Shown: piece by piece, positions 215-24,113 of the stretch | Position numbering within the stretch: position 1 is the first letter of the stretch | How the letters are laid out: the number at the start of each line of letters is the position of its first letter | Assembly (NCBI GenBank): GCA_021648625.1 | Contig: JAKISK010000002.1 | Span: 1-53,991 of the forward strand | DNA from: Thiomicrorhabdus sp. | GTDB taxonomy: Bacteria; Pseudomonadota; Gammaproteobacteria; Thiomicrospirales; Thiomicrospiraceae | Reading direction: 5' to 3' | DNA length: 53,991 bases | Position numbers and translations under genes: made by a program | Notes under the pieces: model-generated | The model's input: the letters and a program-made list of their open reading frames with translations, nothing else | Databases searched by the model: none | Told to the model about the DNA's origin: nothing

Positions 215-276
215 ATGCAATTTCCTGTGGTAAGAAAAGGGCATTCTATTTCAGTTGGCCTTTTTCTTACAAGTTA

Positions 277-300
277 ATTGCACTTGTTATGCGAATTCAA
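277..300. repeat. Terminal end of the IS30-family element
   Basis: The bases ending GCGAATTCAA stop exactly where similarity to the other leader-peptide genes begins (GATGTTAAATTAAAC from 301). This places the insertion junction between 300 and 301, within the third codon of the original gene. The other end of the element lies outside the window. Confidence 0.7.
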
Positions 301-510
301 GATGTTAAATTAAACGGAATGAGAGAATTAAACTTTAATGAGATTGAGGAAGTTAGTGGGGGAAATCCTTGGCTTATTTACACTGCCTGGGTAGCTCTAG
401 GGACGTTTGTTACCCGGACTTTATATGTTCCTAAGCAGAGTGATTCTTGGACAGGTAGGTCTGATGGAGCTTGGGGGGATGGGCCTAGACAACCTGCTAT
501 ACGACGTTAA
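289..510 (+). CDS. Double-glycine leader peptide 1, start supplied by IS30 end
   Basis: This 73-residue peptide carries the leader segment MRELNFNEIEEVSGG found in four further genes in the window. It matches the double-glycine leaders of class II bacteriocins and microcins (compare the colicin V leader MRTLTLNELDSVSGG), which C39-peptidase ABC exporters cleave after GG. The predicted 48-residue core is hydrophobic at first (WLIYTAWVALGTFV) and Gly/Arg-rich later. The native start and upstream region are gone: the IS30 end provides an in-frame ATG at 289, so the protein starts MRIQDVKLN instead of MNDVKLN. No good ribosome binding site precedes this ATG, so expression is doubtful and the gene may be a disrupted remnant. 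Reading further upstream in this frame only enters the insertion element. Confidence 0.7.
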   Translation: MRIQDVKLNGMRELNFNEIEEVSGGNPWLIYTAWVALGTFVTRTLYVPKQSDSWTGRSDGAWGDGPRQPAIRR

Positions 511-579
511 ATGTAAATCATACATGACTGTGTGGGCAAAATATCGCCCATACAGATCTATATTTATTGAGACTTAAGT

Positions 580-1383
580 ATGTTTAAAAAAATTATGTTA
601 TGCCTGTTTTGGGTGTCTGCCCCTCTCAATAGAGAGCTATCTGTAATAAAAAAATTCTTAATCGTATTGGAAATTTCCCTCAGACTTATTGTCATGATAT
701 GGGCTTTTACCATTATATTACTATTGCCAGCATGGTTTTCTGAGAAGCACGTTATTAACGGCCATATTATTTATGCAAATAATAACGTGAATTCTGAATT
801 ATTACAAAATATACTAGATATAACTAATGAAAGAATGAAAAAAACTGGCATTGATGGATCTGAATCATTACTTACCATTTATTTACATAATAATGACATT
901 CTTTTTTCTCTGTCGGCAATCAGATTTCCTTCTAATGTAAAAGCTGTGCATGAAGGAATTATCTTTAAAAGAATGCACGTTAGCTTAAATGAAGAAGGTA
1001 TACATATCAACGGAATACCTAACCAAGACTGGTTAAGTATTATAATCACTCATGAAAGAATTCATAATCTACAATATAAACGCTATGGAATATTAACTTA
1101 TACACTATTTATCCCTGAATGGGTTAAAGAAGGTTATGCAGGATATATAAGCCGTGGCCGCGTTCCTTCTGATAAGGATTATGAGGAATGGTTAAGGAGA
1201 ATAAACGCAGGTGAAAATATTAATAAACATTTTGAATACTCGATTTTAGTGCGCCATGCAATTGACAAGATGGGATATAGCCCTGATGAGCTACATAATG
1301 ATGAAGTGGATCATGAAATGGTTAAAAAATCCTTGCTTATTTGGGTAGAAAAGGAGCTAAAACAAGCTGTCAAAAATGCATGA
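580..1383 (+). CDS. Membrane-anchored HExxH metallopeptidase-like protein
   Basis: This 267-residue protein has a hydrophobic segment at about residues 33-53, suggesting one N-terminal membrane anchor. A zinc-metallopeptidase signature HERIH lies at 158-162, followed 12 residues after the second His by a conserved-looking Glu (EGYAGY, about 174). The HExxH plus downstream Glu spacing resembles gluzincin peptidases. The second half would lie on the far side of the membrane. It follows leader peptide 1 by 70 bases and precedes a small hypothetical gene, all on the same strand. I do not recognise a named family. A role in maturation, immunity or neither is open; position in the array is the only functional hint. 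The start has only a weak ribosome binding site. Confidence 0.6.
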   Translation: MFKKIMLCLFWVSAPLNRELSVIKKFLIVLEISLRLIVMIWAFTIILLLPAWFSEKHVINGHIIYANNNVNSELLQNILDITNERMKKTGIDGSESLLTIYLHNNDILFSLSAIRFPSNVKAVHEGIIFKRMHVSLNEEGIHINGIPNQDWLSIIITHERIHNLQYKRYGILTYTLFIPEWVKEGYAGYISRGRVPSDKDYEEWLRRINAGENINKHFEYSILVRHAIDKMGYSPDELHNDEVDHEMVKKSLLIWVEKELKQAVKNA

Positions 1384-1406
1384 TTTTGAAAAAAAGGAAT
1401 ACAATA

Positions 1407-1787
1407 ATGAAGCTAATTAAGAATTTTAAACGTAATCGAGCTATAAAATCCTATATAAAAAATCTTCCAAACATGTTAGAAAAAGATTATGGAAGTCGAG
1501 CCTCTTATACACCAATGCAAGTCCATAAAACAATTGAGCGTTATCGTCTTAGTATTGTTTCAATTTCTGCTGGGATTGCTGTGTTTTCAACTAAAGAAGA
1601 ATTTGATCAATATTTTTATGAAACAGGCAACTCTTATAACTATGATGAAATTCGTTCTGAGATAGCAGACAAACATTTCCAAGGAAACATTGATTTTACA
1701 GTTGCAAGCTCTTCACCCATGCCATCTGCACATAACAATCACATAGATACCGACGGAGGTGGCGATGGGGGTGGAGGAGGTAGTTAA
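1407..1787 (+). CDS. Small protein with Gly/Asp-rich tail (DUF6559-like)
   Basis: The ATG at 1407 follows an AAGGA ribosome binding site and gives 126 residues; the same frame is open upstream but overlaps the preceding gene. The protein has a basic start, a middle with YTPMQVHKTIERY and FDQYFYETG, and ends in a run of Gly with Asp and Ser (about the last 15 residues). The pattern, including the glycine-rich tail, resembles proteins that I recall being grouped as DUF6559; this assignment is from memory and of moderate certainty. No function is known. It lies 23 bases after the metallopeptidase-like gene and is probably co-transcribed with it. Confidence 0.55.
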   Translation: MKLIKNFKRNRAIKSYIKNLPNMLEKDYGSRASYTPMQVHKTIERYRLSIVSISAGIAVFSTKEEFDQYFYETGNSYNYDEIRSEIADKHFQGNIDFTVASSSPMPSAHNNHIDTDGGGDGGGGGS

Positions 1788-1912
1788 CAAAAGAGCAAGC
1801 TTGTAATACAGCGTTTGGAGCAACGATCTGTTAGTGTTTCTAAAAAACTACCCCCCTCTCTCCTGTAATAAAAACACATTACAAAAACAACTAATTACCC
1901 TAAAAACACTCC

Positions 1913-1952
1913 TTTTGGCCTATAGACATTAATCATGGGTATGTTTAAATGG
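1913..1952 (+). promoter_or_regulatory. 40-bp conserved array element, copy 1
   Basis: This is a divergent copy beginning TTTTGGCCTATAGACATT and ending GTATGTTTAAATGG. It aligns over exactly 40 positions with seven others in the array. It lies just upstream of the ORF at 1986. TTGGCC and TATGTT could act as -35 and -10 boxes with a 19-bp spacer, but this is inference. Confidence 0.6.
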
Positions 1953-1985
1953 ATGCAATACATTAAGAGCATGTGATTAAACACG

Positions 1986-2279
1986 ATGCCACAACGTAGT
2001 GAAACTGAACATTTAAGAAATGAATCCATGATGAAAGAAACCCTATCAGAAGAAGCCAAAAAAATTGCAGGTACAAAAATGAAACTTGCTATCGGAATTA
2101 CCGTTCACTGTGCTGTTGTTATCTATATGATAGCACGGCTTTTTTATGATATTCCTCCTCCTAATTGGATGCTTGATGCTGCTACGATTTCCTATGCGGG
2201 GTTTGGTTCAATTTACTATTTAACTTTGATTTATAGATTAAACCTTAAGCTTAAACATGCCTCGCCTGATTTTCGTTGA
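1986..2279 (+). CDS. Small two-segment membrane protein (putative immunity family B)
   Basis: The 97-residue product has two hydrophobic stretches (about 35-52 and 63-82) and a basic C-terminus. Its H-AV-YM-FY pattern resembles the 60-residue protein at 5824-6006, so the two may form one family of small membrane proteins, possibly immunity proteins. It begins MPQRSETE; the same start, MPQRSETK then a stop, occurs at 7955 downstream of another copy of the 40-bp element, which suggests that this segment is conserved 5' sequence. The ATG at 2028 (MMKETLSEE) is an alternative start. No leader peptide gene lies immediately upstream. Confidence 0.5.
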   Translation: MPQRSETEHLRNESMMKETLSEEAKKIAGTKMKLAIGITVHCAVVIYMIARLFYDIPPPNWMLDAATISYAGFGSIYYLTLIYRLNLKLKHASPDFR

Positions 2280-2335
2280 CAACCTTGTGAATAGAGCTCC
2301 CACAAACAGTCTATTATTACTGGTGTAATACTCAA

Positions 2336-2677
2336 TTGCGATGCCAATGCTTAATTAAGACAATCCTTCAAACTAAAAAACTAGTATTCTTACTCACCAT
2401 ATATTTTTCTTTTTTTACGTTGCTTGCTATCTTTGATTACTACACATCTAATATTAAACTATTTCAAAATACAGAAAACATCACTGACTTCTTATCCTCC
2501 TATTTAATATTGTTTGCCCTTACCTATTTATACATGTTTTTAGACTGCTTTTACATTAAGATAATGAAAAACTATCTTAAGTTTACAAAAAAAGAGCTCC
2601 AACCTCACTCTAGAACTATATTTATAATGTCTTTTACATTAATTAATTTAGCTATATTAAATCGATCTTTATACTAA
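2336..2677 (+). CDS. Small membrane protein, putative immunity family A (copy 1)
   Basis: A TTG at 2336 is the probable start: no ATG is in frame nearby, and the resulting MRCQCL matches MWCKCL at the start of the homologue at 9627. The 113-residue protein has about three hydrophobic segments and a central motif DCFYIKIMK followed by KKELQPHS, which aligns with NCLY-MIKK-GY-EISPYS in the proteins at 4193 and 9627. Small hydrophobic proteins coded just after bacteriocin peptides are commonly immunity proteins; that role is inferred here. This copy has no adjacent leader peptide, so it may be an orphan immunity gene. Confidence 0.55.
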   Translation: MRCQCLIKTILQTKKLVFLLTIYFSFFTLLAIFDYYTSNIKLFQNTENITDFLSSYLILFALTYLYMFLDCFYIKIMKNYLKFTKKELQPHSRTIFIMSFTLINLAILNRSLY

Positions 2678-2700
2678 CTTGAATTCACCACATGAGAAGA

Positions 2701-3068
2701 CAAAATAAAGGGGTCAATCCTGTTTTACAATATATAAAAACGTCAGTACCATTTTTTCTTAAATACAATAAACATCAGCTCTAAATTTTCCAAAAAATAT
2801 CCCCCCCTACTCAAACGAATCAAAAAATTATTGTCTATTTTATAAACGAACAAACTCAATTCAAGCAATTCTTTACCACACGAAATGACGCAAGCACAAT
2901 GCTACCGATTTCACACATCACAACAAATATCCATATCCTAAAAATAGTTATTTTGACCTATAGACATTCCTTTTGGGTGTGTTTAAATGGACACAACAAA
3001 TTAAGAACACGTTATTAAAAAACGCACTTAATTCAAGACCACTAACCCAATCGTTTGGAGAGACAATT
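2701..3068 (+). repeat. Conserved upstream block of cassette 1
   Basis: This stretch without a gene is repeated with high similarity upstream of each NTF2-like gene. Recognisable parts are a CAATCCTGTTTTACAATATA segment, a C7 tract at 2811-2817, TTGTCTATTTTATAAACGAA, CAATGCTACCGATTTCAC, the 40-bp element, and ACACGTTATTAAAAAACGCA before a GGAGAG ribosome binding site. A short ORF across it is broken in other copies, so it looks regulatory, not coding. Confidence 0.75.
2951..2990 (+). promoter_or_regulatory. 40-bp conserved array element, copy 2
   Basis: Canonical copy, TTTTGACCTATAGACATTCC followed by TTTTGGGTGTGTTTAAATGG, 78 bp before the NTF2-like start at 3069. TTGACC is a near-perfect -35 box; the -10 is less clear. 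Confidence 0.65.
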
Positions 3069-3509
3069 ATGTTTAAAAAACTAACCATCGCCTTAGCCCT
3101 ATCCGCTTCCATGCTCAGTTATACCAACATGACATTTGCAAACAGTGACGTAGATGCAGCGCAACTAGAAGCCGTTATCACCGCTAAAATCGCCGCAACA
3201 TCAAAAGGGTCTGAGTCCATTGAAGACATAATGAGTACCATACACAGTGGTTCACCCGTTGCGCTAGAGACCCGAGCGCAAATGGAACAAATTCTTCCTG
3301 CTGTGGATATGAATGCATCTTTGGTAGAGTTTAGTTTTGTAGGACAAGCTGGCGATTATGCGGTTGCAAAAATCAAAGAAAAAGCAGAAAAAATCACCGG
3401 CCCTGCACAATTTAAAAGCAATGAAATGGAACAGTTAATTGTCTTTAAACAAGAAGATGGGCAATGGAAAATCTGGCAAGCCAGTGTTTTGGATATAAAG
3501 TATTTATAA
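3069..3509 (+). CDS. Secreted NTF2-like protein, copy 1
   Basis: The ATG at 3069 follows GGAGAG and opens a 146-residue protein; the open frame upstream (MGVFKWTQQ) only reflects the conserved 5' DNA. A clear signal peptide (MFKKLTIALALSASML, cleavage probably after FA at about 22) predicts export. The mature part ends with the pattern VFKQEDGQWKIWQASVLDIKYL-like, typical of SnoaL/NTF2-like domains with a final curved sheet. Four other copies in the window are almost identical, in contrast to the variable peptides that follow. It is separated from leader peptide 2 by a structured segment of 166 bases. A periplasmic role such as binding, chaperoning or protecting against the peptide is only inference. 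Confidence 0.75.
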   Translation: MFKKLTIALALSASMLSYTNMTFANSDVDAAQLEAVITAKIAATSKGSESIEDIMSTIHSGSPVALETRAQMEQILPAVDMNASLVEFSFVGQAGDYAVAKIKEKAEKITGPAQFKSNEMEQLIVFKQEDGQWKIWQASVLDIKYL

Positions 3510-3675
3510 CCGAATCTTAAAAACAAAAAACGCCCTGGTTAAATAAATAACCAAGGCGTTAAAAGTTTCCGGTGTTGGTTACTGCCAGTACCAGAAAAAA
3601 TGGCTTTTAAACAATTTTGTTTAGAAGCTTTACATAAGACAGCGTAATTATACGCTATTAATGAGGTAACTCAAA
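3510..3675 (+). promoter_or_regulatory. Structured intercistronic segment, copy 1
   Basis: Four potential hairpins follow each other: 3529-3560 (AACGCCCTGGTT / AACCAAGGCGTT), 3571-3592 (GGTGTTGG / CCAGTACC with G-U pairs), 3603-3628 (GCTTTTAAAC / GTTTAGAAGC) and 3641-3656 (AGCGTA / TACGCT). The ribosome binding site GAGGTAA for leader peptide 2 follows. The first hairpin lacks a proper T-run on this strand and would be a better terminator on the other. Conservation in four cassettes suggests an RNA that tunes expression between the two genes. Confidence 0.6.
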
Positions 3676-3897
3676 ATGAATGATGTTAAATTAAACGGAA
3701 TGAGAGAATTAAACTTTAATGAGATTGAGGAAGTTAGTGGGGGTTGGTTTATCCCTGGTGCTCTACTTGGTGGAGGCTATGCCGGTATTCGTCAAACCTA
3801 TGATAAGTTTGACGCAATACTTGATGGTAGAGAGATCCCTGATTATCGGCCTGGTGCTATTCTAGAAGCGGCTATATCGGGAGCTGGTGCAGGGTAA
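3676..3897 (+). CDS. Double-glycine leader peptide 2 (microcin-like)
   Basis: The ATG follows GAGGTAACTCAAA. The 73-residue product has the 23-residue leader starting MNDVKLNG and ending EEVSGG, then a 50-residue core rich in Gly and Ala with several small-xxx-small patterns (GALLGGGYAG, AAISGAGAG) of the type found in class II bacteriocins. The core resembles that of peptide 5 at 9291: both have GGG, TYD-F-AI, a Gly-x-x-x-Pro segment and a Gly/Ala-rich tail. Each of these two peptides is followed by an immunity family A gene. Processing would need a C39-type ABC exporter, which is not in the window. Assignment as bacteriocin precursor rests on leader and composition, not on known homologues of the core. 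Confidence 0.75.
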   Translation: MNDVKLNGMRELNFNEIEEVSGGWFIPGALLGGGYAGIRQTYDKFDAILDGREIPDYRPGAILEAAISGAGAG

Positions 3898-3985
3898 CTT
3901 AGGTGATAGATATTTTCCATCGCGCCGTTAAATAACAACGTTGTAAAATTAATATAGCATGATTACTAATTATTGGTCATGCTAT

Positions 3986-4151
3986 ACCCTAATCCCCAGA
4001 TAGAAAATACGTTTATAGCGCAAACCCTTGACGCACCTAAAAAATGTAAAAAAGGACGCATCACCAATAAGGTGACATTGTCTTTTTTACATTCAACTAT
4101 GCACATCAATTGCTTACACTCTAATTCGCATTTCTATCTAAGGATTAAGGC
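3986..4151. repeat. MITE-like element family M1, copy in the array
   Basis: A 166-bp palindromic element with ends CCCTAATCCCCAGATAGAAA and a degenerate right end TTTCTATCTAAGGATTAAGG. It is flanked by TAT on both sides, consistent with a 3-bp target duplication. The middle can fold (TGTAAAAAAGGAC / GTCTTTTTTACA and CACC / GGTG). It separates leader peptide 2 from its putative immunity gene. The short ORF across it is repeat sequence, not a gene. Confidence 0.85.
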
Positions 4152-4192
4152 TATTATATGAAAAACAGCCATATAAGCAAACCGAGTAAAAT

Positions 4193-4522
4193 ATGCCACA
4201 CAATTGTTTCACTAAAATACATTTTAAAATAACAAAAAATTTATTTAAATCCCATATTATACTGTTCACTTTACTGGCCGTTTTAAATGTTTATGTAGAC
4301 GTTTTATTCTTACCGAATACACCTATAAAATTTTTATTCGCTTATATCATTTTATTTATTTTTGCTTGGCTATCCAAGATTCCAAATTGTTTATATATCA
4401 ATTTTATGATAAAAAAAATGGGGTATGTAGAAAAAGAAATCAGCCCTTATTCATCTCCTGTATTTGCCGTTATCTTTTTACTCATTGCCACCCTACTCAT
4501 GTCTGTACTCGGAATACTGTAA
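4193..4522 (+). CDS. Small membrane protein, putative immunity family A (copy 2)
   Basis: This 109-residue protein has three hydrophobic segments (about 22-40, 45-63 and 89-108). Between the second and third lies PNCLYINFMIKKMGY followed by EKEISPYS. That signature is almost the same in the protein at 9627 and is recognisable in the one at 2336. It follows leader peptide 2, from which it is separated by an M1 element. Because peptides 2 and 5 resemble each other and both precede an A-type protein, a cognate immunity role is likely but not shown. Confidence 0.6.
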   Translation: MPHNCFTKIHFKITKNLFKSHIILFTLLAVLNVYVDVLFLPNTPIKFLFAYIILFIFAWLSKIPNCLYINFMIKKMGYVEKEISPYSSPVFAVIFLLIATLLMSVLGIL

Positions 4523-4549
4523 TCATCCAACAATAAACACCTAGCGCTC

Positions 4550-4836
4550 TAAATTATTCAAAAAATATCTCCCCTACTCAAACGAATCAAAAAATTATTG
4601 TCTATTTTATAAACGAACAAACTCAATTCAAGCAATTCTTTACCACACAAAATGACGCAAGCACAATGCTACCGATTTCACGCATCACAACAAATATCTA
4701 TATCCTCACAAATGATTATTTTGACCTATAGACATTCCTTTTGGGTGTGTTTAAATGGACACAACAAATTAAGAACACGTTATTAAAAAACGCACTTAAT
4801 TCAATACAACTAACCCAATCGTTTGGAGAGACAATT
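4550..4836 (+). repeat. Conserved upstream block of cassette 2
   Basis: Same sequence parts as the block at 2701-3068, starting about at CTCTAAATTATTCAAAAAAT. A single-base change near 4707 breaks the short frame open in copies 1, 3 and 5, supporting a non-coding role. Confidence 0.75.
4719..4758 (+). promoter_or_regulatory. 40-bp conserved array element, copy 3
   Basis: Canonical copy, identical to the one at 2951-2990, 78 bp upstream of the NTF2-like start at 4837. Confidence 0.65.
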
Positions 4837-5277
4837 ATGTTTAAAAAACTAACCATCGCCTTAGCCCTATCCGCTTCCATGTTTAGCTATACCAATATGG
4901 CATTTGCAAATAACGATGCGGATGTTGCGCAATTAGAAGCCGTTATCACCGCTAAAATCGCCGCAACATCAAAAGGGTCTGAGTCCATTGAAGACATAAT
5001 GAGCACCATACACAGTGGTTCACCCGTTGCGCTAGAGACCCGAGCGCAAATGGAACAAATTCTTCCTGCTGTGGATATGAATGCATCTTTGGTAGAGTTT
5101 AGTTTTGTAGGACAAGCTGGCGATTATGCGGTTGCAAAAATCAAAGAAAAAGCAGAAAAAATCACCGGCCCTGCACAATTTAAAAGCAATGAAATGGAAC
5201 AGTTAATTGTCTTTAAACAAGAAGATGGGCAATGGAAAATCTGGCAAGCCAGTGTTTTGGATATAAAGTATTTATAA
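4837..5277 (+). CDS. Secreted NTF2-like protein, copy 2
   Basis: An intact 146-residue copy with a GGAGAG ribosome binding site and signal peptide. It differs from copy 1 mainly around the signal-peptide end (AFANNDADVAQLE against TFANSDVDAAQLE), while the rest is nearly unchanged. The C-terminal QEDGQWKIWQASVLDI segment fits the NTF2-like fold. Near-identity over about 400 bp suggests recent duplication or gene conversion. It leads a cassette with leader peptide 3 and a small membrane protein. Confidence 0.75.
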   Translation: MFKKLTIALALSASMFSYTNMAFANNDADVAQLEAVITAKIAATSKGSESIEDIMSTIHSGSPVALETRAQMEQILPAVDMNASLVEFSFVGQAGDYAVAKIKEKAEKITGPAQFKSNEMEQLIVFKQEDGQWKIWQASVLDIKYL

Positions 5278-5443
5278 TCGAATCTTAAAAATAAAAAACG
5301 CCCTGGTTAAATAAATAACCAAGGCGTTAAAAGTTTCCGGTGTTGGTGACAGCCAATACCAGAAAAAATGGCTTTTAAACAATTTTGTTTAGAAGCTTTA
5401 ATAAAAGCAGCGTAATTATACGTTATTAATGAGGTAACTCAAA
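5278..5443 (+). promoter_or_regulatory. Structured intercistronic segment, copy 2
   Basis: The same four hairpins as at 3510-3675. Changes keep pairing: CCAGTACC becomes CCAATACC (a G-U pair becomes A-U), and the last stem AGCGTA / TACGTT keeps a G-U pair. The peptide 3 ribosome binding site GAGGTAA follows. Confidence 0.6.
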
Positions 5444-5692
5444 ATGAACGATGTTAAATTAAACGAAATGAGAGAATTAAACTTTAATGAGATTGAGGAA
5501 GTTAGTGGGGGGCTTGATTGGCGTGATACTTTTGGGATTGCGGGAGCTGCTGTCGGCACTGTATTAGGTAGAGGTAATGCTTGGGCTACAGCAGGAGGAA
5601 CAGCAGCAGGTCTGTCATTATATGACTATGGTAACACCTTATATCGTTCATGGGCACTTAACGACTACAATCGCAATCCTTATGGTTGGTAA
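5444..5692 (+). CDS. Double-glycine leader peptide 3 (microcin-like)
   Basis: An 82-residue product with the shared leader (one change, Gly to Glu at residue 8) and a 59-residue core. The core has a long small-residue region with GxxxG-type spacing (GIAGAAVGTVLG, TAGGTAAGLS) and an aromatic C-terminus (NRNPYGW). It is unlike the cores of the other four peptides. A 60-residue membrane protein of putative immunity family B follows. The GAGGTAA ribosome binding site and the structured upstream segment are intact, so this is one of the best preserved cassettes. Confidence 0.75.
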   Translation: MNDVKLNEMRELNFNEIEEVSGGLDWRDTFGIAGAAVGTVLGRGNAWATAGGTAAGLSLYDYGNTLYRSWALNDYNRNPYGW

Positions 5693-5823
5693 CAAATTCA
5701 AAGAAGCTAAATTTAACACCAAAAATTAAAATTAAGCTTTGAAGAAATTGGCCTATCTATAAAAAGTTAATGAGTATATAACTCATTAACTTAAGGGACT
5801 CTAAATCTATTTTTGGATAAAAA

Positions 5824-6006
5824 ATGAAAAAAACAACCGAACTTAATTTTTATTTGAATATGGTTACCCATGTTGCAGTTGCAACATACATGTTTTTAAA
5901 TTTTTTCTATGGCGTGGAATGGAACATCGATATACTAGTTTTTATAATAACGGGAATATTCCCTATATTTTACTTAATTAAACTCAGGGCAACAAAGAAA
6001 GAATAA
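5824..6006 (+). CDS. Small membrane protein, putative immunity family B
   Basis: This 60-residue protein has two hydrophobic stretches (about 11-28 and 35-53) and a basic tail (KLRATKKE). Its VTHVAVATYMFLNFFYG region resembles ITVHCAVVIYMIARLFYD in the protein at 1986. It lies 131 bases after leader peptide 3 and before the next cassette, where a cognate immunity protein would be expected. The role is inferred from size, topology and place only. Confidence 0.5.
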   Translation: MKKTTELNFYLNMVTHVAVATYMFLNFFYGVEWNIDILVFIITGIFPIFYLIKLRATKKE

Positions 6007-6377
6007 AAAGGTCAGTGCCATTTATCCTTCATAAGGCTAATTTTTCTTCAAAAAAATAGAAAATTGGTGCATTTGTTCTTGAACACAACAAGGATAAGCT
6101 CTCAATTATTCAAAAATACCCCCCTACTTAAAGAAATCATTGTCTATTTTATAAACGAACAAATTCAATTCAGGCAATTCTTTACCACACAAAATGACGC
6201 AAGCACAATGCTACCGATTTCACGTATCACAACAAATATCCATATCCTCAAAATGATTATTTTGACCTATAGACATTCCTTTTGGGTGTGTTTAAATGGA
6301 CACAACAAATTAAGAACACGTTATTAAAAAACGCACTTAATTCAATACCACTAACCCAATCGTTTAGAGAGACAATT
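6007..6377 (+). repeat. Conserved upstream block of cassette 3
   Basis: Contains the shared parts AAAAGGTCAG, GTGCATTTGT-CTTGAACACAA, TTGTCTATTTTATAAACGAA, the 40-bp element and the conserved 5' untranslated stretch. An 87-codon ORF crosses it, but its frame is broken in copies 2 and 4. Confidence 0.75.
6260..6299 (+). promoter_or_regulatory. 40-bp conserved array element, copy 4
   Basis: Canonical copy, 78 bp upstream of the frameshifted NTF2-like gene at 6378. Confidence 0.65.
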
Positions 6378-6820
6378 ATGTTTAAAAAACTAACCATCGC
6401 CTTAGCCCTATCCGCTTCCATGTTTAGCTATACCAATATGGCATTTGCAAACAGTGACGTAGATGCACAGCTCAACTAGAAGCCGTTATCACCGCTAAAA
6501 TCGCCGCAACAACAAAAGAGTCCGAATCCATTGATGACATGATGAAAACCATACACAGTAGCTCACCCATTGCGTTAGAGTCCAGAGCGCAAATGGAGCA
6601 AATATTTCCTGTTGTGGATATGAACACTTCTTTAATTGAGTTTAGCTTTGTCGGACAAGCGGGCGATTATGCGGTTGCCAAAATCAAAGAAAAAATAGAA
6701 AAAGTGACAGGTCCTGCGCAATTTAAAAGCAATGAAATGGAACAGTTAATTGTCTTTAAACAAGAAGATGGGCAATGGAAAATCTGGCAAGCCAGTGTTT
6801 TGGATATAAAGTATTTATAA
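6378..6820 (+). pseudogene. NTF2-like gene, copy 3, frameshifted
   Basis: The gene starts like the other copies with an intact signal peptide. It has two extra bases near 6467 (GATGCACAGCTCAACTAG against GATGCAGCTCAACTAG), so translation ends at 6479 after about 33 residues. The rest of the protein, from ITAKIAAT to the usual end DIKYL, continues in another frame to 6820. The second half is also the most divergent copy (MKTIHSSSPIALESRAQ), which suggests an older copy. Upstream element, hairpins and peptide gene remain, so the cassette may still make peptide 4 without its secreted partner. Confidence 0.8.
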
Positions 6821-6986
6821 TCGAATCTTAAAAACAAAAAACGCCCTGATTAAATAAATAACCAAGGCGTTAAAAGTTTCCGGTGTTGGTTACTGCCAAT
6901 ACCAGAAAAAACGGCTTTTAAACAATTTTGTTTAGAAGCTTTAATAAAAGCAGCGTAATTATACGCTATTAATGAGGTAACTCAAA
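6821..6986 (+). promoter_or_regulatory. Structured intercistronic segment, copy 3
   Basis: Same four hairpins; the first stem has CGCCCTGATT opposite AACCAAGGCG, so one pair is lost, while stems two to four are kept. The ribosome binding site for peptide 4 follows. Confidence 0.55.
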
Positions 6987-7268
6987 ATGAATGATGTTAA
7001 ATTAAACGGAATGAGAGAATTAAACTTTAATGAGATTGGGGAAGTTAGTGGGGGGTCATTTTTTCAGAATTTTTTCCCTGCACACACTGCACAATTTAGC
7101 AAAAATCCTATTGGTGGTTCTCCAGAGTCTCAAGTACGCTATGCTAACTCTATTAACTTATTTCGAGAAATATCAACAACAACCGCTGGTTTTTTTGGGA
7201 ACAAAGGAGTTGATTTCGCTACTAAACAAATACCAATATTTGTTTTTAATAATCCTTGGAATTATTAA
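6987..7268 (+). CDS. Double-glycine leader peptide 4
   Basis: A 93-residue product with the shared leader (Glu to Gly at residue 18, giving IGEVSGG) and the longest core, 70 residues. The core is less Gly/Ala-rich than the others. It starts SFFQNFFPAHTAQF and ends in an aromatic stretch, PIFVFNNPWNY. It is not clearly related to the other cores. A 57-residue hydrophobic protein and a 101-residue membrane protein follow. The leader makes export by a C39-type transporter likely; the function of the core is unknown. Confidence 0.7.
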   Translation: MNDVKLNGMRELNFNEIGEVSGGSFFQNFFPAHTAQFSKNPIGGSPESQVRYANSINLFREISTTTAGFFGNKGVDFATKQIPIFVFNNPWNY

Positions 7269-7416
7269 AAAATATTTTTTTAGTCCTAAGCCTAAATGAA
7301 ATATTATATCCTTTATTTTTTATATGCTTAAATCAGTCGATCATTAAGTCACTAAAAAATGTGGCTACTTGGTACCTACTAGGTAGTCACAACAAAATAA
7401 ATATTTAAGGCGCCTT

Positions 7417-7590
7417 ATGGATTTAATAATTACTTTTATTATTGAAATGTCACGAATTATCGGTAGACGTATTGTTCGATTTTTAAATTTTACTGACATT
7501 AATGAAGAAATAGAGAGTGTAATAGGTTTAATTTTTATAGCTACTTTAATAGCTACTTTAATATTTATTGGAATCAAAACCCTATTTTAA
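7417..7590 (+). CDS. Small hydrophobic protein MDLIITF, copy 1 (putative immunity family C)
   Basis: An ATG after AAGGCGCCTT opens 57 residues. These begin MDLIITFIIEMSRIIGRRIV and end in a long hydrophobic helix (about 36-57, ending IFIGIKTLF). A second copy at 10651 has the same start and context (AAATAAATATTTAAGGCGCC) with conservative changes such as Arg to Lys and Phe to Leu. That substitution pattern suggests selection on the protein. It lies 148 bases after leader peptide 4 and may be its immunity protein. Confidence 0.6.
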   Translation: MDLIITFIIEMSRIIGRRIVRFLNFTDINEEIESVIGLIFIATLIATLIFIGIKTLF

Positions 7591-7612
7591 GTAAAAACAC
7601 AAAAAGAAGTAA

Positions 7613-7640
7613 ACTTGAATTCGCATCATAAACACAACTG
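7613..7640. repeat. Relic of an IS30-type terminal sequence
   Basis: ACTTGAATTCGCATCATAAA resembles the reverse complement of the IS30-element end at 277-300. No transposase remains. Around it, 7591-8002 has no gene: a GC-rich patch near 7700-7725, a partial copy of the conserved upstream block from about 7737, and the 40-bp element. Confidence 0.4.
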
Positions 7641-7880
7641 ATCCTAAGCTGTTAATAAATCAACAGATTTCTCTAGAAACATCTCAACAGGCTATTTTCC
7701 GTCTCGCGACTTTCGAGAGGCCGTCTATTGAAAAAAAAAGAGGGCTATCCTGCTTTACAACAGATAAAACCAGGCAGATTAAATTCAATCAACTCTCTAA
7801 TGCTTTACCGCACGAAATGACGCAAACTCAATGCTACCGACTTCACTTATCAAAACAAATACCCTACCCTAAAATGGTTG

Positions 7881-7920
7881 TTTTGACCTATAGACATTCC
7901 TTTTGGGTATGCTTAAATGG
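7881..7920 (+). promoter_or_regulatory. 40-bp conserved array element, copy 5
   Basis: One of the two copies with GGTATG-TTAAATGG; here TATGC replaces TATGT. It precedes the truncated MPQRSET stub and the membrane protein at 8003, not an NTF2-like gene. Confidence 0.6.
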
Positions 7921-8002
7921 ACACAACAAATTAAGAACATTTGATTAAACTGCGATGCCACAACGTAGTGAAACTAAACAATAGTTATTATGAGAAAATC
8001 GC

Positions 8003-8308
8003 ATGAATAATCTAACTGGGTATCTAATAGATGCAATAAGGTCAAGTATCATTGGAATACTAGCCTTAAGCATCATTTTTTTTTCCGAAGCTCTCTCAAC
8101 CTCTTGGTTCGCTTTATTGACGACAGTATCAATAATAACGATTTGTCGAGCAACAACAACCTTTATTCTGTTATACACTTTTCGTAAAAAACATAAACCC
8201 ATTGGAAACATAACTATCTATATATATGAAGGAATAAACTTTATTGGCATAGCCTCTGCCGTGTTTATTGGAGCATCAATTATGAACGAAAGCCTTCAAT
8301 TCTCATAG
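8003..8308 (+). CDS. Small membrane protein of unknown family
   Basis: A 101-residue protein with about three hydrophobic segments (15-30, 33-60 and 72-93) and a basic loop RKKHKPIG between the second and third. It follows a partial upstream block with the 40-bp element and a nine-codon stub (MPQRSETKQ-stop at 7955-7984), which matches the start of the ORF at 1986. It may be an immunity-type protein that has replaced the original gene behind this promoter. I do not recognise a family. Confidence 0.5.
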   Translation: MNNLTGYLIDAIRSSIIGILALSIIFFSEALSTSWFALLTTVSIITICRATTTFILLYTFRKKHKPIGNITIYIYEGINFIGIASAVFIGASIMNESLQFS

Positions 8309-8317
8309 TTAGAAGGA

Positions 8318-8688
8318 AACAACCCTATTTTACAATATATAAAAGCATAAAAAGGTCAGGACAAGGCTAATTCCTCGACCCTGTAAAAAAAACAGTGCAT
8401 TTGTCCTTGAACACAATAAGGATAAGCTCTTAATTTTTCAAAAATACCCCCCCCCCTACTCAAAAAAATCAAGAAATCATTGTCTATTTCATAATCGAAC
8501 AAATTCAATTCAGGCAATAATGCTACCGATTTCACACATCACAACAAATATCCATATCCTCAAAATGATTATTTTGACCTATAGACATTCCTTTTGGGTG
8601 TGTTTAAATGGACACAACAAATTAAGAACACGTTATTAAAAAACGCACTTAATTCATACAACTAACCCAAGAGTTTGGAGAAACCATT
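8318..8688 (+). repeat. Conserved upstream block of cassette 4
   Basis: Contains the same parts as the other blocks. A C10 tract lies at 8447-8456, and a deletion removes the CTTTACCACACGAAATGACG part. The 40-bp element and 5' untranslated stretch are intact. Confidence 0.75.
8572..8611 (+). promoter_or_regulatory. 40-bp conserved array element, copy 6
   Basis: Canonical copy upstream of the NTF2-like gene at 8689. Confidence 0.65.
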
Positions 8689-9129
8689 ATGCTTAAAAAA
8701 CTAACCATCGCATTAGCCCTATCCGCTTCCATGCTCAGTTATACCAACATGGCATTTGCAAACAGTGACGTAGATGCAGCTCAACTAGAAGCCGTTATTA
8801 CCGCTAAAATCGTCGCAACATCAAAAGGGTCTGAGTCCATTGAAGACATAATGAGCACCATACACAGTGGTTCACCCGTTGCGCTAGAGACCCGAGCGCA
8901 AATGGAGCAAATTCTTCCTGCTGTGGATATGAATGCATCTTTGGTAGAGTTTAGTTTTGTAGGACAAGCTGGCGATTATGCGGTTGCAAAAATCAAAGAA
9001 AAAGCAGAAAAAATCACCGGCCCTGCACAATTTAAAAGCAATGAAATGGAGCAGTTAATTGTCTTTAAACAAGAAGATGGGCAATGGAAAATCTGGCAAG
9101 CCAGTGTTTTGGATATAAAGTATTTATAA
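8689..9129 (+). CDS. Secreted NTF2-like protein, copy 4
   Basis: An intact 146-residue copy starting MLKKLTIALALSASML behind a GGAGAAACC ribosome binding site. It is nearly identical to copies 1 and 2; the visible differences are a Leu at residue 2 and Val for Ala in ITAKIVAT. Signal peptide and terminal DGQWKIWQ segment are kept. It heads the cassette with leader peptide 5 and an immunity family A protein. The antisense ORF over its 3' end is a shadow. Confidence 0.75.
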   Translation: MLKKLTIALALSASMLSYTNMAFANSDVDAAQLEAVITAKIVATSKGSESIEDIMSTIHSGSPVALETRAQMEQILPAVDMNASLVEFSFVGQAGDYAVAKIKEKAEKITGPAQFKSNEMEQLIVFKQEDGQWKIWQASVLDIKYL

Positions 9130-9290
9130 TCGAATCTTAAAAAAAACGCCCTGGTTAAATAAATAACCAAGGCGTTAAAAGTTTCCAGTGTTGGCTGTAA
9201 CCAATACCAGAAAAAATGGCTTTTAAACAATTTTGTTTAGAAGCTTTAATAAAGCAGCGTAATTATACGCTATTAATGAGGTAACTCAAA
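9130..9290 (+). promoter_or_regulatory. Structured intercistronic segment, copy 4
   Basis: Same layout as the other three copies: ACGCCCTGGTT / AACCAAGGCGT, GTGTTGG / CCAATAC with a different loop (CTGTAA), GCTTTTAAAC / GTTTAGAAGC, and AGCGTA / TACGCT. The loop change with kept stems supports base pairing. Confidence 0.6.
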
Positions 9291-9548
9291 ATGAATGATG
9301 TTAAATTAAACAGAATGAGAGAATTAAACTTTAATGAGATTGAGGAAGTTAGTGGGGGGCGTAATGATTTTTGGCCTGGCGGACCTATTGGTGGGGGAAT
9401 TTATGTGTTTAACCATACGTACGATAGCTTTCAGGCAATCGGTCAAGGTAAACCCTTACCAGAGTTTAGTAGTGGTGACTTTGCACAATCCATATTTGGC
9501 GGAGCTATTGCAGGCGGAGCATTAAGCCACTGGCGTAAATTCTTCTAG
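9291..9548 (+). CDS. Double-glycine leader peptide 5 (microcin-like)
   Basis: An 85-residue product with the shared leader (Gly to Arg at residue 8) and a 62-residue core. The core shares a skeleton with peptide 2: GGG near the start, TYDSFQAI against TYDKFDAI, a Gly-Lys-Pro-Leu-Pro segment, and a Gly/Ala-rich end (IFGGAIAGGALS). It then adds a basic aromatic tail (HWRKFF). Small-xxx-small motifs fit membrane-active class II bacteriocins. The next gene, at 9627, is an immunity family A protein, as after peptide 2. The ribosome binding site GAGGTAA is intact. Confidence 0.78.
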   Translation: MNDVKLNRMRELNFNEIEEVSGGRNDFWPGGPIGGGIYVFNHTYDSFQAIGQGKPLPEFSSGDFAQSIFGGAIAGGALSHWRKFF

Positions 9549-9626
9549 ATTTAGGTTATTTATAAAGAGTCAGAATTTTGTTCTGGCTCCCCTTTTTCTC
9601 TGAAGGACTATAAGGAAAAATACTAC

Positions 9627-9965
9627 ATGTGGTGTAAATGTTTAAATGAAATAAACCCTCTACTGATTTTGAAAGGGTCTGTTTATAAAAAAATTTTACA
9701 GCTCAGCATCTTTGTGCTATATATTCTAGCCGCCCATTTCTTGGGTTTCTCTATCATTTCTTGGTCAACATCTTTCCAAGAAACATTGTGGGGATATGTG
9801 ATTCTTATTATTTTCATATGGCTTTCGCTATACCCTAACTGCCTATATACTGAAACTATGATAAAAAAATTTGGTTATAAAAAAGAAGAAATTAGCCCTT
9901 ATTCAATCTATATTTTTATAGTCATTTTTTTATTTATTGCTATTACAGTTATAAAAATTATGTAG
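9627..9965 (+). CDS. Small membrane protein, putative immunity family A (copy 3)
   Basis: A 112-residue protein with three hydrophobic segments and the signature YPNCLYTETMIKKFGY followed by EEISPYS. It is closely similar to the protein at 4193 and more distantly to the one at 2336. It starts MWCKCL, which matches the TTG-initiated start at 2336. The short distance (78 bases) to leader peptide 5 suggests co-expression and a cognate immunity role. Confidence 0.62.
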   Translation: MWCKCLNEINPLLILKGSVYKKILQLSIFVLYILAAHFLGFSIISWSTSFQETLWGYVILIIFIWLSLYPNCLYTETMIKKFGYKKEEISPYSIYIFIVIFLFIAITVIKIM

Positions 9966-9981
9966 TTTAAAATAGATTGAG

Positions 9982-9998
9982 ACCTTTACACGAGCACC
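9982..9998. repeat. Fragment of element family M2 end
   Basis: GAGACCTTTACACGAGC resembles the end GAGACCTTTGCACGA of the elements at 29660 and 43338. No second end is visible nearby, so it is a relic. Confidence 0.35.
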
Positions 9999-10023
9999 AA
10001 ATATTTTCTATCAAACCTAATAA

Positions 10024-10422
10024 AAAAAGGGAACAATCCTGTTTTACAATATATAAAAGCATAAAAAGGTCAGCATAAGTCTAACCCCTCTCCAAAAAAA
10101 CAGTGCATTTGTCCTTGAACACAATAAGGATAAGCTCTCAATTTTTCAAAAATATCCCCCCTACTCAAACAAATCAAGAAATCATTGTCTATTTCATAAA
10201 CGAACAAATTCAATTCAGGCAATTCTTTACCACACGAAATGACACAAGCGCAATGCTACCGATTTCACTCATCACAACAAATATCCATATCCTCAAAATG
10301 ATTATTTTGACCTATAGACATTCCTTTTGGGTATGTTTAAATGGACACAATAAATTAAGAACACGTTATTAAAAAACGCACTTAATTCAATATCACTAAC
10401 CCAATCGTTTGGAGAGACAATT
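10024..10422 (+). repeat. Conserved upstream block of cassette 5
   Basis: A full block with AATCCTGTTTTACAATATAT, the CTTGAACACAATAAGGATAA segment, TTGTCTATTTCATAAACGAA and the 40-bp element. An 89-codon ORF across it is not conserved in frame between copies. Confidence 0.75.
10305..10344 (+). promoter_or_regulatory. 40-bp conserved array element, copy 7
   Basis: A copy with GGGTATGTTTAAATGG, in which TATGTT is a closer -10 candidate than in the TGTGTT copies. It precedes the truncated NTF2-like gene. Confidence 0.65.
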
Positions 10423-10626
10423 ATGTTTAAAAAACTAACCATCGCCTTAGCCCTATCCGCTTCCATGTTTAGCTATACCAATATGGCATTTGCAAATAAC
10501 GATGAGGATGTTGCGCAATTAGAAGCCGTTATTACCGCTAAAATCGCCGCAACAACAAAAGACTCAGAATCCATTGAAAATATTATGAAAACCATCCACA
10601 GCAGTTCACCTGTTGAACTAGTATAG
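10423..10626 (+). pseudogene. NTF2-like gene, copy 5, truncated by recombination
   Basis: The signal peptide and about 60 residues are normal (to KTIHSSSPVEL). After two more residues a stop follows, and at about 10625 the sequence switches to AGCAAAATAAATATTTAAGG, the leader of the MDLIITF gene seen at about 7393. The rest of the NTF2-like domain, the hairpin segment and a leader peptide are missing. A deletion between two cassettes explains this. The 67-residue product keeps a signal peptide but not the fold, so it is probably non-functional. Confidence 0.75.
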
Positions 10627-10650
10627 CAAAATAAATATTTAAGGCGCCTT

Positions 10651-10824
10651 ATGGATTTAATAATTACTTTTATTATTGAAATGTCACGAATTGTTGGTAA
10701 ACGTATTGTCCGAATTTTAAATTTAACTGAGCTTAATGAAGAAATGGAAAGCATAATAGGTTTAATTTTTATATCTACTTTAATCGCTATTTTAATATTT
10801 ATTGGGATCGCAATCCTATTTTAA
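10651..10824 (+). CDS. Small hydrophobic protein MDLIITF, copy 2 (putative immunity family C)
   Basis: A 57-residue paralogue of the protein at 7417, with the same start and AAGGCGCCTT context, and a C-terminal membrane helix ending IFIGIAILF. Differences are conservative (RIVGKRIV against RIIGRRIV, TELNEEMES against TDINEEIES). The deletion that truncated the upstream gene put it directly behind the NTF2-like start, so it is now driven by that promoter without a peptide gene. This would fit an orphan immunity gene kept after its toxin was lost. Confidence 0.6.
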   Translation: MDLIITFIIEMSRIVGKRIVRILNLTELNEEMESIIGLIFISTLIAILIFIGIAILF

Positions 10825-10948
10825 ATAAAAAATTCAATCGAAAAAAGAACGGTATTCAATTCCATTAAATTAAGAAATAACTTAGTACCCTAATCCCTCT
10901 TCTATGCCCTGTAATGCACAAAAAAATCATCTATTCTTAAAATAGTTC

Positions 10949-10988
10949 TTCTGGCCTATCGACACTTAGTTTAAGTATGTTTAAATGG
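10949..10988 (+). promoter_or_regulatory. 40-bp conserved array element, copy 8
   Basis: The most divergent copy: TTCTGGCCTATCGACACTTA then GTTTAAGTATGTTTAAATGG. It lies 31 bp before the membrane protein gene at 11020. Its -35-like TGGCC and TATGTT positions are kept. Confidence 0.5.
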
Positions 10989-11019
10989 ACACCACTGATT
11001 CAATATAACGAAATAAAAT

Positions 11020-12018
11020 ATGGAACCACAATTAATTGTATCTCTATCAGGGCTCTTAGGAATGACAGTTACCTTGATGGTAATTGGCATTACTTGGCTA
11101 AAAAGAAAGCCTTTAAATTCAGATTTCAATCAAGACTGTAAGGTATTTTATATCCGACCTGAGATACGTTTTTTGGGGCTATTTTTAGCTATTATCTCTA
11201 TTACCGTGATGACTCTCGTAGTTTTTCTAATTCCTGTAGAAGAATTTAAGCCTAGTGACTGGGTAATGGCTTTTATATTTGGCATATTCATCGGTGGCTT
11301 TGGAAGTATAAGTGGCGTTATGCTGTTCATTATTCGCGCAAAGGTTAATAAGCATGGCGTATTAGGCTACTCTGCTTTAGGCATACCGCGCTTTATGGCA
11401 TGGAGTGATTTAAACTTGATTGAATTTAGTGGAGGAATGCAAAGTTATAAATTGATAGGTTGTTCAGGCCATATTTACGTTTCAACATTAATTGAAAAAA
11501 AAACCGAATTTATTGCATTATTAAAACAAAATATTTTACCTGAAAAATTTGAAATAGACTTAAAGTCTCATCTTAATTCTAACGATTGTCCCGAAAAATT
11601 CATGTCTAAAAAACATTTTGAAAGCATGGTAAAACACGCGCCTACGGCATCAATATTACTCACTTTTTTTATCACGTTTTCTTTTCTATTTTTACCTCCC
11701 TATGCTTATGCTCTGTTTATTTCTGCTCTAGCAGGAATCATGCTTATAGGTAGCGCTACTGCTCGATATATATGGCCGAATTTACCAAGTTATTGGCTTA
11801 TTATTTTAGATTTTTTAAGTATTATGTCTATGTCCATTCTTTCTAATTTAGCATGGTCAAAATATACACTTTATTTGGAGAGTCAAAATAGCATTGATAA
11901 CTACACTCAGGTTTTTATTATGTTACAAACGCTCGGTACAACGATGTTATTTGTATTTTTAACGTTAATTACGGTCAAAAAAATGTATCTAACGAAAAAA
12001 ATAGCTAAACATAAATGA
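11020..12018 (+). CDS. Multi-pass membrane protein with PH-like central region
   Basis: A 332-residue protein with about seven hydrophobic segments: three in the first 105 residues and four in the last 120. Between them lies a soluble region of about 100 residues with the pattern GVLGYSALGIPRFMAWSDL...I, which resembles bacterial PH-like (YdbT/YcxB-type) domains. The function is unknown. It lies just downstream of the last 40-bp element and overlaps the lipoprotein gene by four bases (ATGA at 12015), so the two are surely co-expressed. It belongs to the accessory array by context, but similarity to its smaller membrane proteins is not evident. Confidence 0.6.
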   Translation: MEPQLIVSLSGLLGMTVTLMVIGITWLKRKPLNSDFNQDCKVFYIRPEIRFLGLFLAIISITVMTLVVFLIPVEEFKPSDWVMAFIFGIFIGGFGSISGVMLFIIRAKVNKHGVLGYSALGIPRFMAWSDLNLIEFSGGMQSYKLIGCSGHIYVSTLIEKKTEFIALLKQNILPEKFEIDLKSHLNSNDCPEKFMSKKHFESMVKHAPTASILLTFFITFSFLFLPPYAYALFISALAGIMLIGSATARYIWPNLPSYWLIILDFLSIMSMSILSNLAWSKYTLYLESQNSIDNYTQVFIMLQTLGTTMLFVFLTLITVKKMYLTKKIAKHK

Positions 12019-12365
12019 AAAAACTATTACGCTTATTTTCAGCATTATTATTGTCCGCTCTACTTTTTGGTTGCAGCGAAGTCAATGTAACAAACACAAA
12101 ATGGACATGTGAAAAAAATAAACAAACATGCAATGTTGTTTTTTCTGTCATCAATAAAAGTAACGAATCCGTAAGTACAGCCATTCTTATTCGAGCTTAT
12201 GACCGAGTAGGCAGAGGTAAAGGAGCGATATCCAATATTCTTATTGGTGAAAAAACGATTAACATTATTTTGCTCCCAAATGAACACGTTTTTTTAAATG
12301 AAACACTCACCGTTCATGGGCGTGTATCAATGCTTGTTGCGACCATTATTAATAATAAAGACTAA
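12015..12365 (+). CDS. Small lipoprotein
   Basis: A 116-residue protein with a typical lipoprotein signal: MKKLLRLF, a hydrophobic stretch and the lipobox LLFGC with the lipidated Cys at about 20. The mature part has two further Cys (WTCEKNKQTC) that may form a disulfide, and a beta-rich FxVxN-like pattern (VVFSVINKSNESV) seen in small immunoglobulin-like lipoproteins. It overlaps the upstream membrane protein gene by four bases. Function unknown. Confidence 0.65.
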   Translation: MKKLLRLFSALLLSALLFGCSEVNVTNTKWTCEKNKQTCNVVFSVINKSNESVSTAILIRAYDRVGRGKGAISNILIGEKTINIILLPNEHVFLNETLTVHGRVSMLVATIINNKD

Positions 12366-12393
12366 AAAATTTTAACATCTAAGGTTAGAATCC

Positions 12394-12470
12394 GTTGCAC
12401 TTATGATTCGAATTCAAGATATATTTTAGACCTTTGCACGAAAGGATACACAAATAAAAAAGGCTATTGT
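12394..12470. repeat. Relics of IS30-type and M2 element ends
   Basis: GTTGCACTTATGATTCGAAT plus TCAAG (12394-12418) resembles the IS30-type end at 277-300. It is followed at 12429 by AGACCTTTGCACGAAAGGAT and AAAAAAGGCT, which match one end of the M2 family at 29660 and 43338. Both are fragments. They mark the right edge of the cassette array. Confidence 0.45.
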
Positions 12471-12526
12471 TAAATGAAACTCTCTCTTAAAACTTAGGTA
12501 CAATCAATGTCAAAAAAAGGGGATTC

Positions 12527-12814
12527 ATGGAAGAAATAATTTCTTTTATATTTATTTTGTTCTTTGTTGAAATCATTATGTTTGGTTTTTTTTATAGTAC
12601 AGGATATTTTTTGACGCCAATCGTCTCACTGGGTAAATGGAAGCCCGATAAGGTCTTTAAAGAAGTGGACGTTAAGGTCAAAATTAAGCATCAATCGGGC
12701 ATTTTATTGTTCAAAAAATCTACCCATGTTTACCTTGGCGTGGGTGGTGTGATTGGTTTAGGCGTTACGTTTTGGATTTTAGTTGTCGTCTTATTTTGGG
12801 TCACTCAGTCCTGA
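12527..12814 (+). CDS. Small two-helix membrane protein
   Basis: A 95-residue protein with an N-terminal hydrophobic stretch (about 5-25), a polar middle with KWKPDKVFKEVDVKVK, and a second hydrophobic stretch (about 70-92, GVGGVIGLGVTFWILVVVLF). A GGGG sequence precedes the ATG as ribosome binding site. It is the last + strand gene before a convergent oxidoreductase gene. No family recognised. Confidence 0.55.
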   Translation: MEEIISFIFILFFVEIIMFGFFYSTGYFLTPIVSLGKWKPDKVFKEVDVKVKIKHQSGILLFKKSTHVYLGVGGVIGLGVTFWILVVVLFWVTQS

Positions 12815-12914
12815 ATTTGTAACGTCACTGCGGCATAAAACTTAAGCTATTGATTTATTACACTCAGGTTAAAGTATGTAATCAATAAAGGGGATTTTCT
12901 CCCCCCCTCCTTAA

Positions 12915-20342: not shown

Positions 20343-20398
20343 TAAGTAATTCTAGGAATTGTCATTTTCTTAAACCTTGGCATACTGATTCTCATTAA

Positions 20399-20563: not shown

Positions 20564-20591
20564 TAAAAATGAAAATGAACACCTTAAATTC

Positions 20592-23896: not shown

Positions 23897-23947
23897 AACG
23901 TACTCCTTTTTGGTGTGTTACCTTTTTATTATACCCCTTTAAGTACT

Positions 23948-24112: not shown

Positions 24113-24113
24113 A

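What the first reader, a model, noticed from the sequence alone, without database searches (positions are those of the whole stretch)
3676..9965. Peptide core and putative immunity protein vary together
The cores of peptides 2 (3676) and 5 (9291) share GGG, TYD-F-AI, a Gly-x-x-x-Pro segment and a Gly/Ala tail, and each is followed by a closely related family A membrane protein (4193 and 9627, NCLY-MIKK-GY-EISPYS). Peptides 3 and 4 have other cores and are followed by other small membrane proteins. Co-variation of the toxin core with the adjacent gene is what cognate toxin-immunity pairs show.
Basis: partly seen in the sequence, partly recalled or inferred. Interest (0 to 1): 0.75.

Follow-up and report, generated by a model that had tools for sequence, protein, structure and literature searches.

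The report
Paired bacteriocin–immunity modules in one regulon
A sulfur-oxidising bacterium appears to carry a row of small secreted toxin genes that share a switch and an export tag but differ in their active part, and the two toxins with related active parts are each followed by a related small membrane protein that probably protects the producer.

Summary
Of 21 core pairs among seven leader peptides, only p2/p5 are alike; their neighbours 4193 and 9627 are the only alike pair of neighbours that both stand behind a peptide. As proof of co-variation this is thin: one matched pair, a 1-in-10 coincidence within the array, and block duplication would look the same. Family A was found in no other genome searched, so the matched-tree test could not be run.

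Other evidence makes a class II microcin locus likely. The one C39-peptidase exporter found in this genome lies on another contig with HlyD, TolC and LuxR-type genes. A 36-bp box has 10 sites in the genome, all in the array or this exporter locus. Four units share a 92-96% identical front block that stops at the Gly-Gly codons; beyond it core and neighbour differ, so core plus neighbour is the exchangeable module. Peptide-less copies of all three neighbour families exist, like orphan immunity genes.

Most likely: a co-regulated set of microcins with cognate membrane immunity proteins. It works like the pneumococcal blp region but is not a member of it. Killing and immunity are untested.

The parts
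289..510 (+). Peptide 1: leader preserved from residue 4 on, 5' end replaced next to an insertion-sequence end; core unrelated to the others
580..1383 (+). 267-aa protein with one hydrophobic segment and an HExxH motif behind peptide 1; not a typical immunity gene
   Evidence: no Pfam match
1915..1950 (+). Dyad box, unit without a leader peptide
1986..2279 (+). Peptide-less relative of 5824 (family B)
   Evidence: z 10.4, 0 of 500
2336..2677 (+). Peptide-less distant family A protein
2953..2988 (+). Dyad box, unit c
3069..3509 (+). Secreted SnoaL/DUF4440-like protein (146 aa), unit c
   Evidence: (below Pfam cut-offs)
3676..3897 (+). Peptide 2, double-glycine leader plus core
3986..4150 (+). 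Repeat element with inverted ends, inserted between peptide 2 and 4193
4193..4522 (+). Family A membrane protein, candidate immunity protein of peptide 2
4721..4756 (+). Dyad box, unit d
4837..5277 (+). Secreted SnoaL-like protein, unit d
5444..5692 (+). Peptide 3 (weak MccV and Bacteriocin_IIc matches below cut-off)
5824..6006 (+). 60-aa membrane protein, candidate immunity protein of peptide 3 (family B)
6262..6297 (+). Dyad box, unit e
6378..6820 (+). Secreted SnoaL-like gene of unit e, reading frame broken
6987..7268 (+). Peptide 4
7417..7590 (+). 57-aa membrane protein, candidate immunity protein of peptide 4 (family C)
7883..7918 (+). Dyad box before 8003
8003..8308 (+). Membrane protein without a leader peptide beside it, not assignable to families A-C
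8574..8609 (+). Dyad box, unit g
8689..9129 (+). Secreted SnoaL-like protein, unit g
9291..9548 (+). Peptide 5
9627..9965 (+). Family A membrane protein, candidate immunity protein of peptide 5
10307..10342 (+). Dyad box, deleted unit h
10423..10626 (+). Cut-off secreted SnoaL-like gene of unit h
10651..10824 (+). Peptide-less copy of 7417 (family C), 45 of 57 residues identical
10951..10986 (+). Dyad box before the 332-aa ORF at 11020

Best explanation
The window holds a row of class II microcin-like units. A full unit is: dyad box (inferred promoter/operator for the LuxR-type regulator encoded beside the exporter), secreted SnoaL-like protein, hairpin, double-glycine leader peptide with a variable core, small membrane protein. 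The leader would send every core to one C39-peptidase ABC/HlyD/TolC exporter on another contig, which cuts after Gly-Gly and releases the core. The small membrane protein behind each core would sit in the producer's inner membrane and block that core. Core and immunity gene are inherited together as one module behind a homogenised front block; families A, B and C are three immunity types. Peptide-less copies would be orphan immunity genes, left after loss of a toxin or kept against neighbours' toxins. Shown: sequences, family relations, module borders, box distribution, exporter. Inferred: killing, immunity, regulation by the LuxR-type protein, site of action.
For: Core and neighbour similarity coincide. 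The front block is 92-96% identical in all 6 pairs of four units and ends at the Gly-Gly codons. p2/p5 cores (dS 0.97) and neighbours (dS saturated) are far more diverged than the secreted protein of units d and g (dS 0.17). 4193/9627 show fewer amino-acid changes than neutral (102 of 154, p 0.0001), as do 1986/5824 (67 of 98, p 0.01). One Peptidase_C39 match in the genome, its domain aligned to solved double-glycine proteases, with HlyD, TolC (453+ aa) and LuxR-type genes. Box pattern: 10 sites, 8 in the array and 2 in the exporter locus, 0 with the reversed control. Neighbours of peptides 2-5 are 57-112 aa with 1-3 hydrophobic segments, within the published range for microcin immunity proteins (PMC9746304, passages). 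Peptide-less copies of families A, B and C.
Against: Only one matched pair; chance coincidence 1 in 10 in the array. Peptides 1 and 6 have no typical immunity neighbour. No profile library places the peptides above its cut-off. Selection on the cores (49 of 69, p 0.20) and on the family C pair (13 of 19, p 0.23) is not shown. The exporter is on another contig of a 79.6% complete draft. No activity data.
Confidence: 0.76

Rival explanations
1. Linkage only: a two-gene block (core plus a membrane gene of another function, such as a helper of maturation or transport) was duplicated and diverged; the neighbour is not an immunity protein.
For: One duplication explains the p2/p5 match. No functional data. 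A shared exporter could need helpers.
Against: A helper serving the shared leader and exporter should be conserved between units, but the neighbours of peptides 2, 3 and 4 are unrelated. Peptide-less copies of each type make little sense for a core-specific helper.
Confidence: 0.14
2. The peptides are signals (pheromones) rather than toxins, and the membrane proteins are receptors or processing factors matched to each signal.
For: Double-glycine leaders also serve pheromones (recalled; also the BlpC example in PMC4860687, passages). A LuxR-type regulator is nearby.
Against: Cores of 48-70 residues are long for known double-glycine pheromones (recalled). No kinase gene was seen in the stretches read around the array and exporter, though the whole genome was not searched for one.
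Confidence: 0.06
3. The array is an integron: each unit is a gene cassette and the box is the recombination site.
For: An integron integrase gene lies elsewhere in the genome (416 bits, above cut-off), and a box stands at the head of each unit after the first.
Against: A box also stands before the 157-aa gene that opens the exporter locus, with a weaker one before the exporter operon. GTTRRRY and RYYYAAC core sites do not fall at the unit borders.
Confidence: 0.03

Closest known systems
Class II microcin systems (five-part description in PMC9746304, passages; microcin V as type)
   Same: Double-glycine precursor, small hydrophobic neighbour of 51-216 aa, C39 ABC exporter, HlyD-type adaptor, TolC-type channel
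   Different: Several units in a row with a homogenised front block and a secreted SnoaL-like protein; exporter on another contig; common box; non-enterobacterial host; activity unknown
Pneumococcal blp bacteriocin immunity region (PMC4860687, PMC6422914, passages)
   Same: Several double-glycine bacteriocins and immunity genes, one transporter, common regulator sites, more immunity than toxin genes, an orphan immunity gene behind a truncated toxin gene (pncFout)
   Different: Gram-positive; two-component regulator with a peptide signal instead of a LuxR-type protein; proteins not compared here by sequence
Moraxella catarrhalis mcbABCI (PMC2761928, passages)
   Same: Double-glycine bacteriocin in a Gram-negative with a small downstream gene proven to be its immunity factor
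   Different: A single toxin/immunity pair; 74-aa immunity protein
Orphan immunity gene arrays of Vibrio cholerae type VI secretion (PMC5361080, listing and start of abstract only)
   Same: Immunity genes kept after their toxin was replaced
   Different: Different toxins and delivery system

Membership tests
Class II microcin system | Precursor with double-glycine leader | tested here: met
   MRELNFNEIEEVSGG in 6 peptides of this genome; leader type judged by motif
Class II microcin system | C39-peptidase ABC transporter | tested here: met
   PF03412 125.9 bits, cut-off 22; aligned to a solved double-glycine protease with Cys, His and Asp kept (which residues are catalytic: for CvaB, otherwise recalled)
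Class II microcin system | HlyD-type adaptor and TolC-type channel | tested here: met
   HlyD_3 59 bits and OEP 140 bits, both above cut-off; full TolC frame
Class II microcin system | Immunity protein of 51-216 aa close to the peptide, with transmembrane helices | tested here: met
   Peptides 2-5: 109, 60, 57, 112 aa with 1-3 hydrophobic segments; not for peptide 1 (267 aa) or peptide 6
Class II microcin system | Antibacterial activity and specific immunity | not testable with these tools
   needs bench work
Pfam MccV family (PF17508) | Score above the curated cut-off | tested here: not met
   Best is peptide 3, 26.2 bits against 27; not filed as a member
blp bacteriocin immunity region | Two-component regulator BlpRH and peptide signal BlpC | not tested
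   A LuxR-type gene is the regulator seen next to the exporter; the genome was not searched for BlpRHC
Integron cassette array | attC core sites at cassette borders next to intI | tested here: not met
   Consensus core sites do not fall at unit borders; intI is on contig C27

The most novel reading that the evidence does not exclude
A Gram-negative counterpart of the pneumococcal bacteriocin immunity region, built by plugging core-plus-immunity modules, with the border at the Gly-Gly codons, into a homogenised front block that includes a secreted SnoaL-like protein. A LuxR-type regulator drives units and exporter through one box, and orphan immunity genes are kept under the same box as a shield against neighbours' microcins.
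Probability: 0.4. Interest if true: 0.65.

Novelty: new variant of a known kind. Interest (0 to 1): 0.52.

Why it matters
Verified microcin immunity proteins show little or no sequence similarity to each other (PMC9746304, passages), so they are hard to recognise. A locus in which three small-membrane-protein families occur both with and without their toxins gives a direct way to name immunity families and test their specificity. It would also show how a free-living sulfur oxidiser exchanges toxin specificity, and it ties toxins, immunity genes and exporter together by one recognisable box.

Tried and rejected
Wider test of matched phylogenies: the family A profile was sought in 62 family genomes, in 'order' (which returned the same 62 genomes), in genome contigs and in viral contigs; the single protein 9627 was sought in plasmids and phages. 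No convincing relative turned up outside this genome; one 19-bit match with 3 stops in G032 was dropped. Leader peptides: 27 pattern stretches in genome contigs gave 1 relative; 110 in viral contigs gave none. Peptide 5 and the secreted protein had no match in plasmids. The secreted protein was found in 2 of 62 family genomes, the box in 3 of 62, the exporter at E 1e-100 in 4 of 62.

The integron idea was rejected as the cause of the array (see rivals). Rfam gave no match in 1-13000. Structure models: family A has low confidence (mean pLDDT 63.8, helices only) and the secreted protein's model is useless (38.8), so no fold search was made. A looser script for the box (two half-sites, variable gap, up to 4 mismatches) also gave scattered hits elsewhere; I take those as chance.

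My slips: one neighbour (i1b) was read out of frame and two were started late; the neighbour comparison was therefore repeated with all 78 pairs, which is the one cited. In one search the unit c secreted protein was read one base late; that pair is void and the d/g pair is cited. The dN/dS counts and the test are simple and ignore transition bias.

Full report
What was checked. The two peptides and the two neighbours are present at the stated places. After removing the leader I compared all 21 pairs of the seven cores found: five in the window, one on contig C23, one in a related genome. Only p2/p5 match (score 95, z 16, 0 of 2000 shuffles); in the other 20 pairs at least 323 of 2000 shuffles reach the score. 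Among all 78 pairs of 13 proteins that stand behind a peptide or alone in the array, five match with 0 of 500 shuffles: 4193/9627, 2336/4193 and 2336/9627 (family A), 1986/5824 (family B), 7417/10651 (family C). The next best pairs are reached by 12, 15 and 16 of 500 shuffles, as expected by chance among 78. So the only matched pair of cores falls on the only matched pair of neighbours that both stand behind a peptide.

How strong that is. With five array peptides the coincidence has odds of 1 in 10, with seven peptides 1 in 21 (arithmetic). Linked duplication would produce it too. The genome is an unnamed draft, 79.6% complete, in 96 contigs. Its relative with the leader (G045, same genus) matches a record titled Thiomicrorhabdus sp., a metagenome-assembled genome.

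Module structure. In the four full units (c, d, e, g = peptides 2, 3, 4, 5) the stretch from the box through the secreted protein and the hairpin to the Gly-Gly codons is 92-96% identical in all 6 pairs. Directly after those codons identity falls to 18-34% of alignment columns for cores, except 44% for p2/p5; shuffled cores give a mean of 28% and a maximum of 39% in 40 trials. Neighbour genes are at 49% for 4193/9627 and 23-42% for the other five pairs; the 42% is between two genes of similar length (5824/7417) whose proteins are not alike. The spacer after the neighbour gene is again partly shared. The p2/p5 cores are at dS 0.97 and dN 0.65 and the neighbours at dN 0.58 with dS saturated, while the secreted protein of units d and g is at dS 0.17. 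Core and neighbour have thus diverged together while the front block stayed alike, presumably by recombination (inference). 4193/9627 show fewer amino-acid changes than neutral expectation (102 of 154, p 0.0001), as do 1986/5824 (67 of 98, p 0.01); the cores (49 of 69, p 0.20) and 7417/10651 (13 of 19, p 0.23) do not significantly.

The exporter and the box. The genome search returned one Peptidase_C39 gene, at C94:30564. With it lie a HlyD-type gene, a TolC-type gene of at least 453 aa and a LuxR-type gene similar to EpsA but below that model's cut-off; its autoinducer domain is also below cut-off. The C39 domain matches solved double-glycine proteases. A pattern for the dyad box with up to 3 mismatches hits 10 places in the genome: 8 in the array, 1 before the 157-aa gene that opens the exporter locus, 1 after the LuxR-type gene; the reversed pattern hits none. 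A weaker box before the exporter operon itself was seen only by a looser script. 3 of 62 family genomes have the box. In G040 the order is ABC-TolC-LuxR-box-secreted protein up to the contig end; in the present genome the secreted-protein start at that place is cut by the repeat element. I read the box as the promoter/operator of one regulon. That the LuxR-type protein binds it is inference from position.

Orphans. The units starting at boxes 1915, 7883 and 10307 contain no leader match. They hold a family B and a family A relative (1986, 2336), an unassigned membrane protein (8003), and a family C gene behind a cut-off secreted-protein gene (10651). In the pneumococcal blp locus pncFout, downstream of a truncated toxin gene and behind a BlpR site, protects (PMC6422914, passages), and immunity genes outnumber toxin genes (PMC4860687, passages).

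Caveats. The join between peptide 2 and 4193 crosses a 165-bp repeat with 35 other copies by my count, where only 40 of 136 candidates were scored. A wrong join would rarely land on a family A gene, so the match itself argues for the assembly. Peptides 1 and 6 lack a typical immunity neighbour. The relative's peptide ends SEG instead of SGG, and its genome gave no exporter match at E 1e-100, so that copy may be decaying. The secreted protein's SnoaL likeness is below Pfam cut-offs.

Place among known things. By parts it meets the published description of class II microcin systems (PMC9746304, passages), without activity shown. It works like the blp region but is not filed there. Nine searches of the held library (listings and abstract starts) showed me no paper on such a locus in Thiomicrorhabdus; one paper holds both that genus name and 'bacteriocin' (listing only). 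Most subscription journals are not in that library.

Noticed in passing
3986-4150; also 20396-20575 and 23947-24118: A 165-bp repeat element with inverted ends; 35 other copies counted in the list (40 of 136 candidates scored).
   Followed up: partly
284-301, 7614-7631 (minus), 12395-12420: The same short sequence occurs three times; it looks like an insertion-sequence end and replaces the start of peptide 1's leader.
   Followed up: no
L016 7786-8052 (minus; contig C23): Sixth leader peptide, with a Pro/Ser-rich core, followed by a 166-aa and a 353-aa protein instead of a small membrane protein; a relative of the 353-aa protein stands right behind a box in G040 C64.
   Followed up: partly
580-1383: Membrane-anchored HExxH protein behind peptide 1; whether it is an unusual immunity protein is open.
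   Followed up: no
L017 266-1606 (G045 C270): Syntenic locus in a relative: leader peptide ending SEG, a 104-aa protein unrelated to families A-C, then box, lipoprotein (window 12015 homologue), box, SDR gene (window 12915 homologue).
   Followed up: partly
9130-9291 and the same place in the other full units: Strong hairpins between the secreted protein and the leader gene (z -5.3 and -4.8); role unknown, perhaps attenuation.
   Followed up: partly
L046 908-1882 (contig C27): Integron integrase gene (416 bits); its cassettes were not looked for.
   Followed up: no
L047 1915-2220 (contig C94): Box and the first bases of a secreted-protein gene cut by the repeat element directly behind the LuxR-type gene of the exporter locus.
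   Followed up: partly
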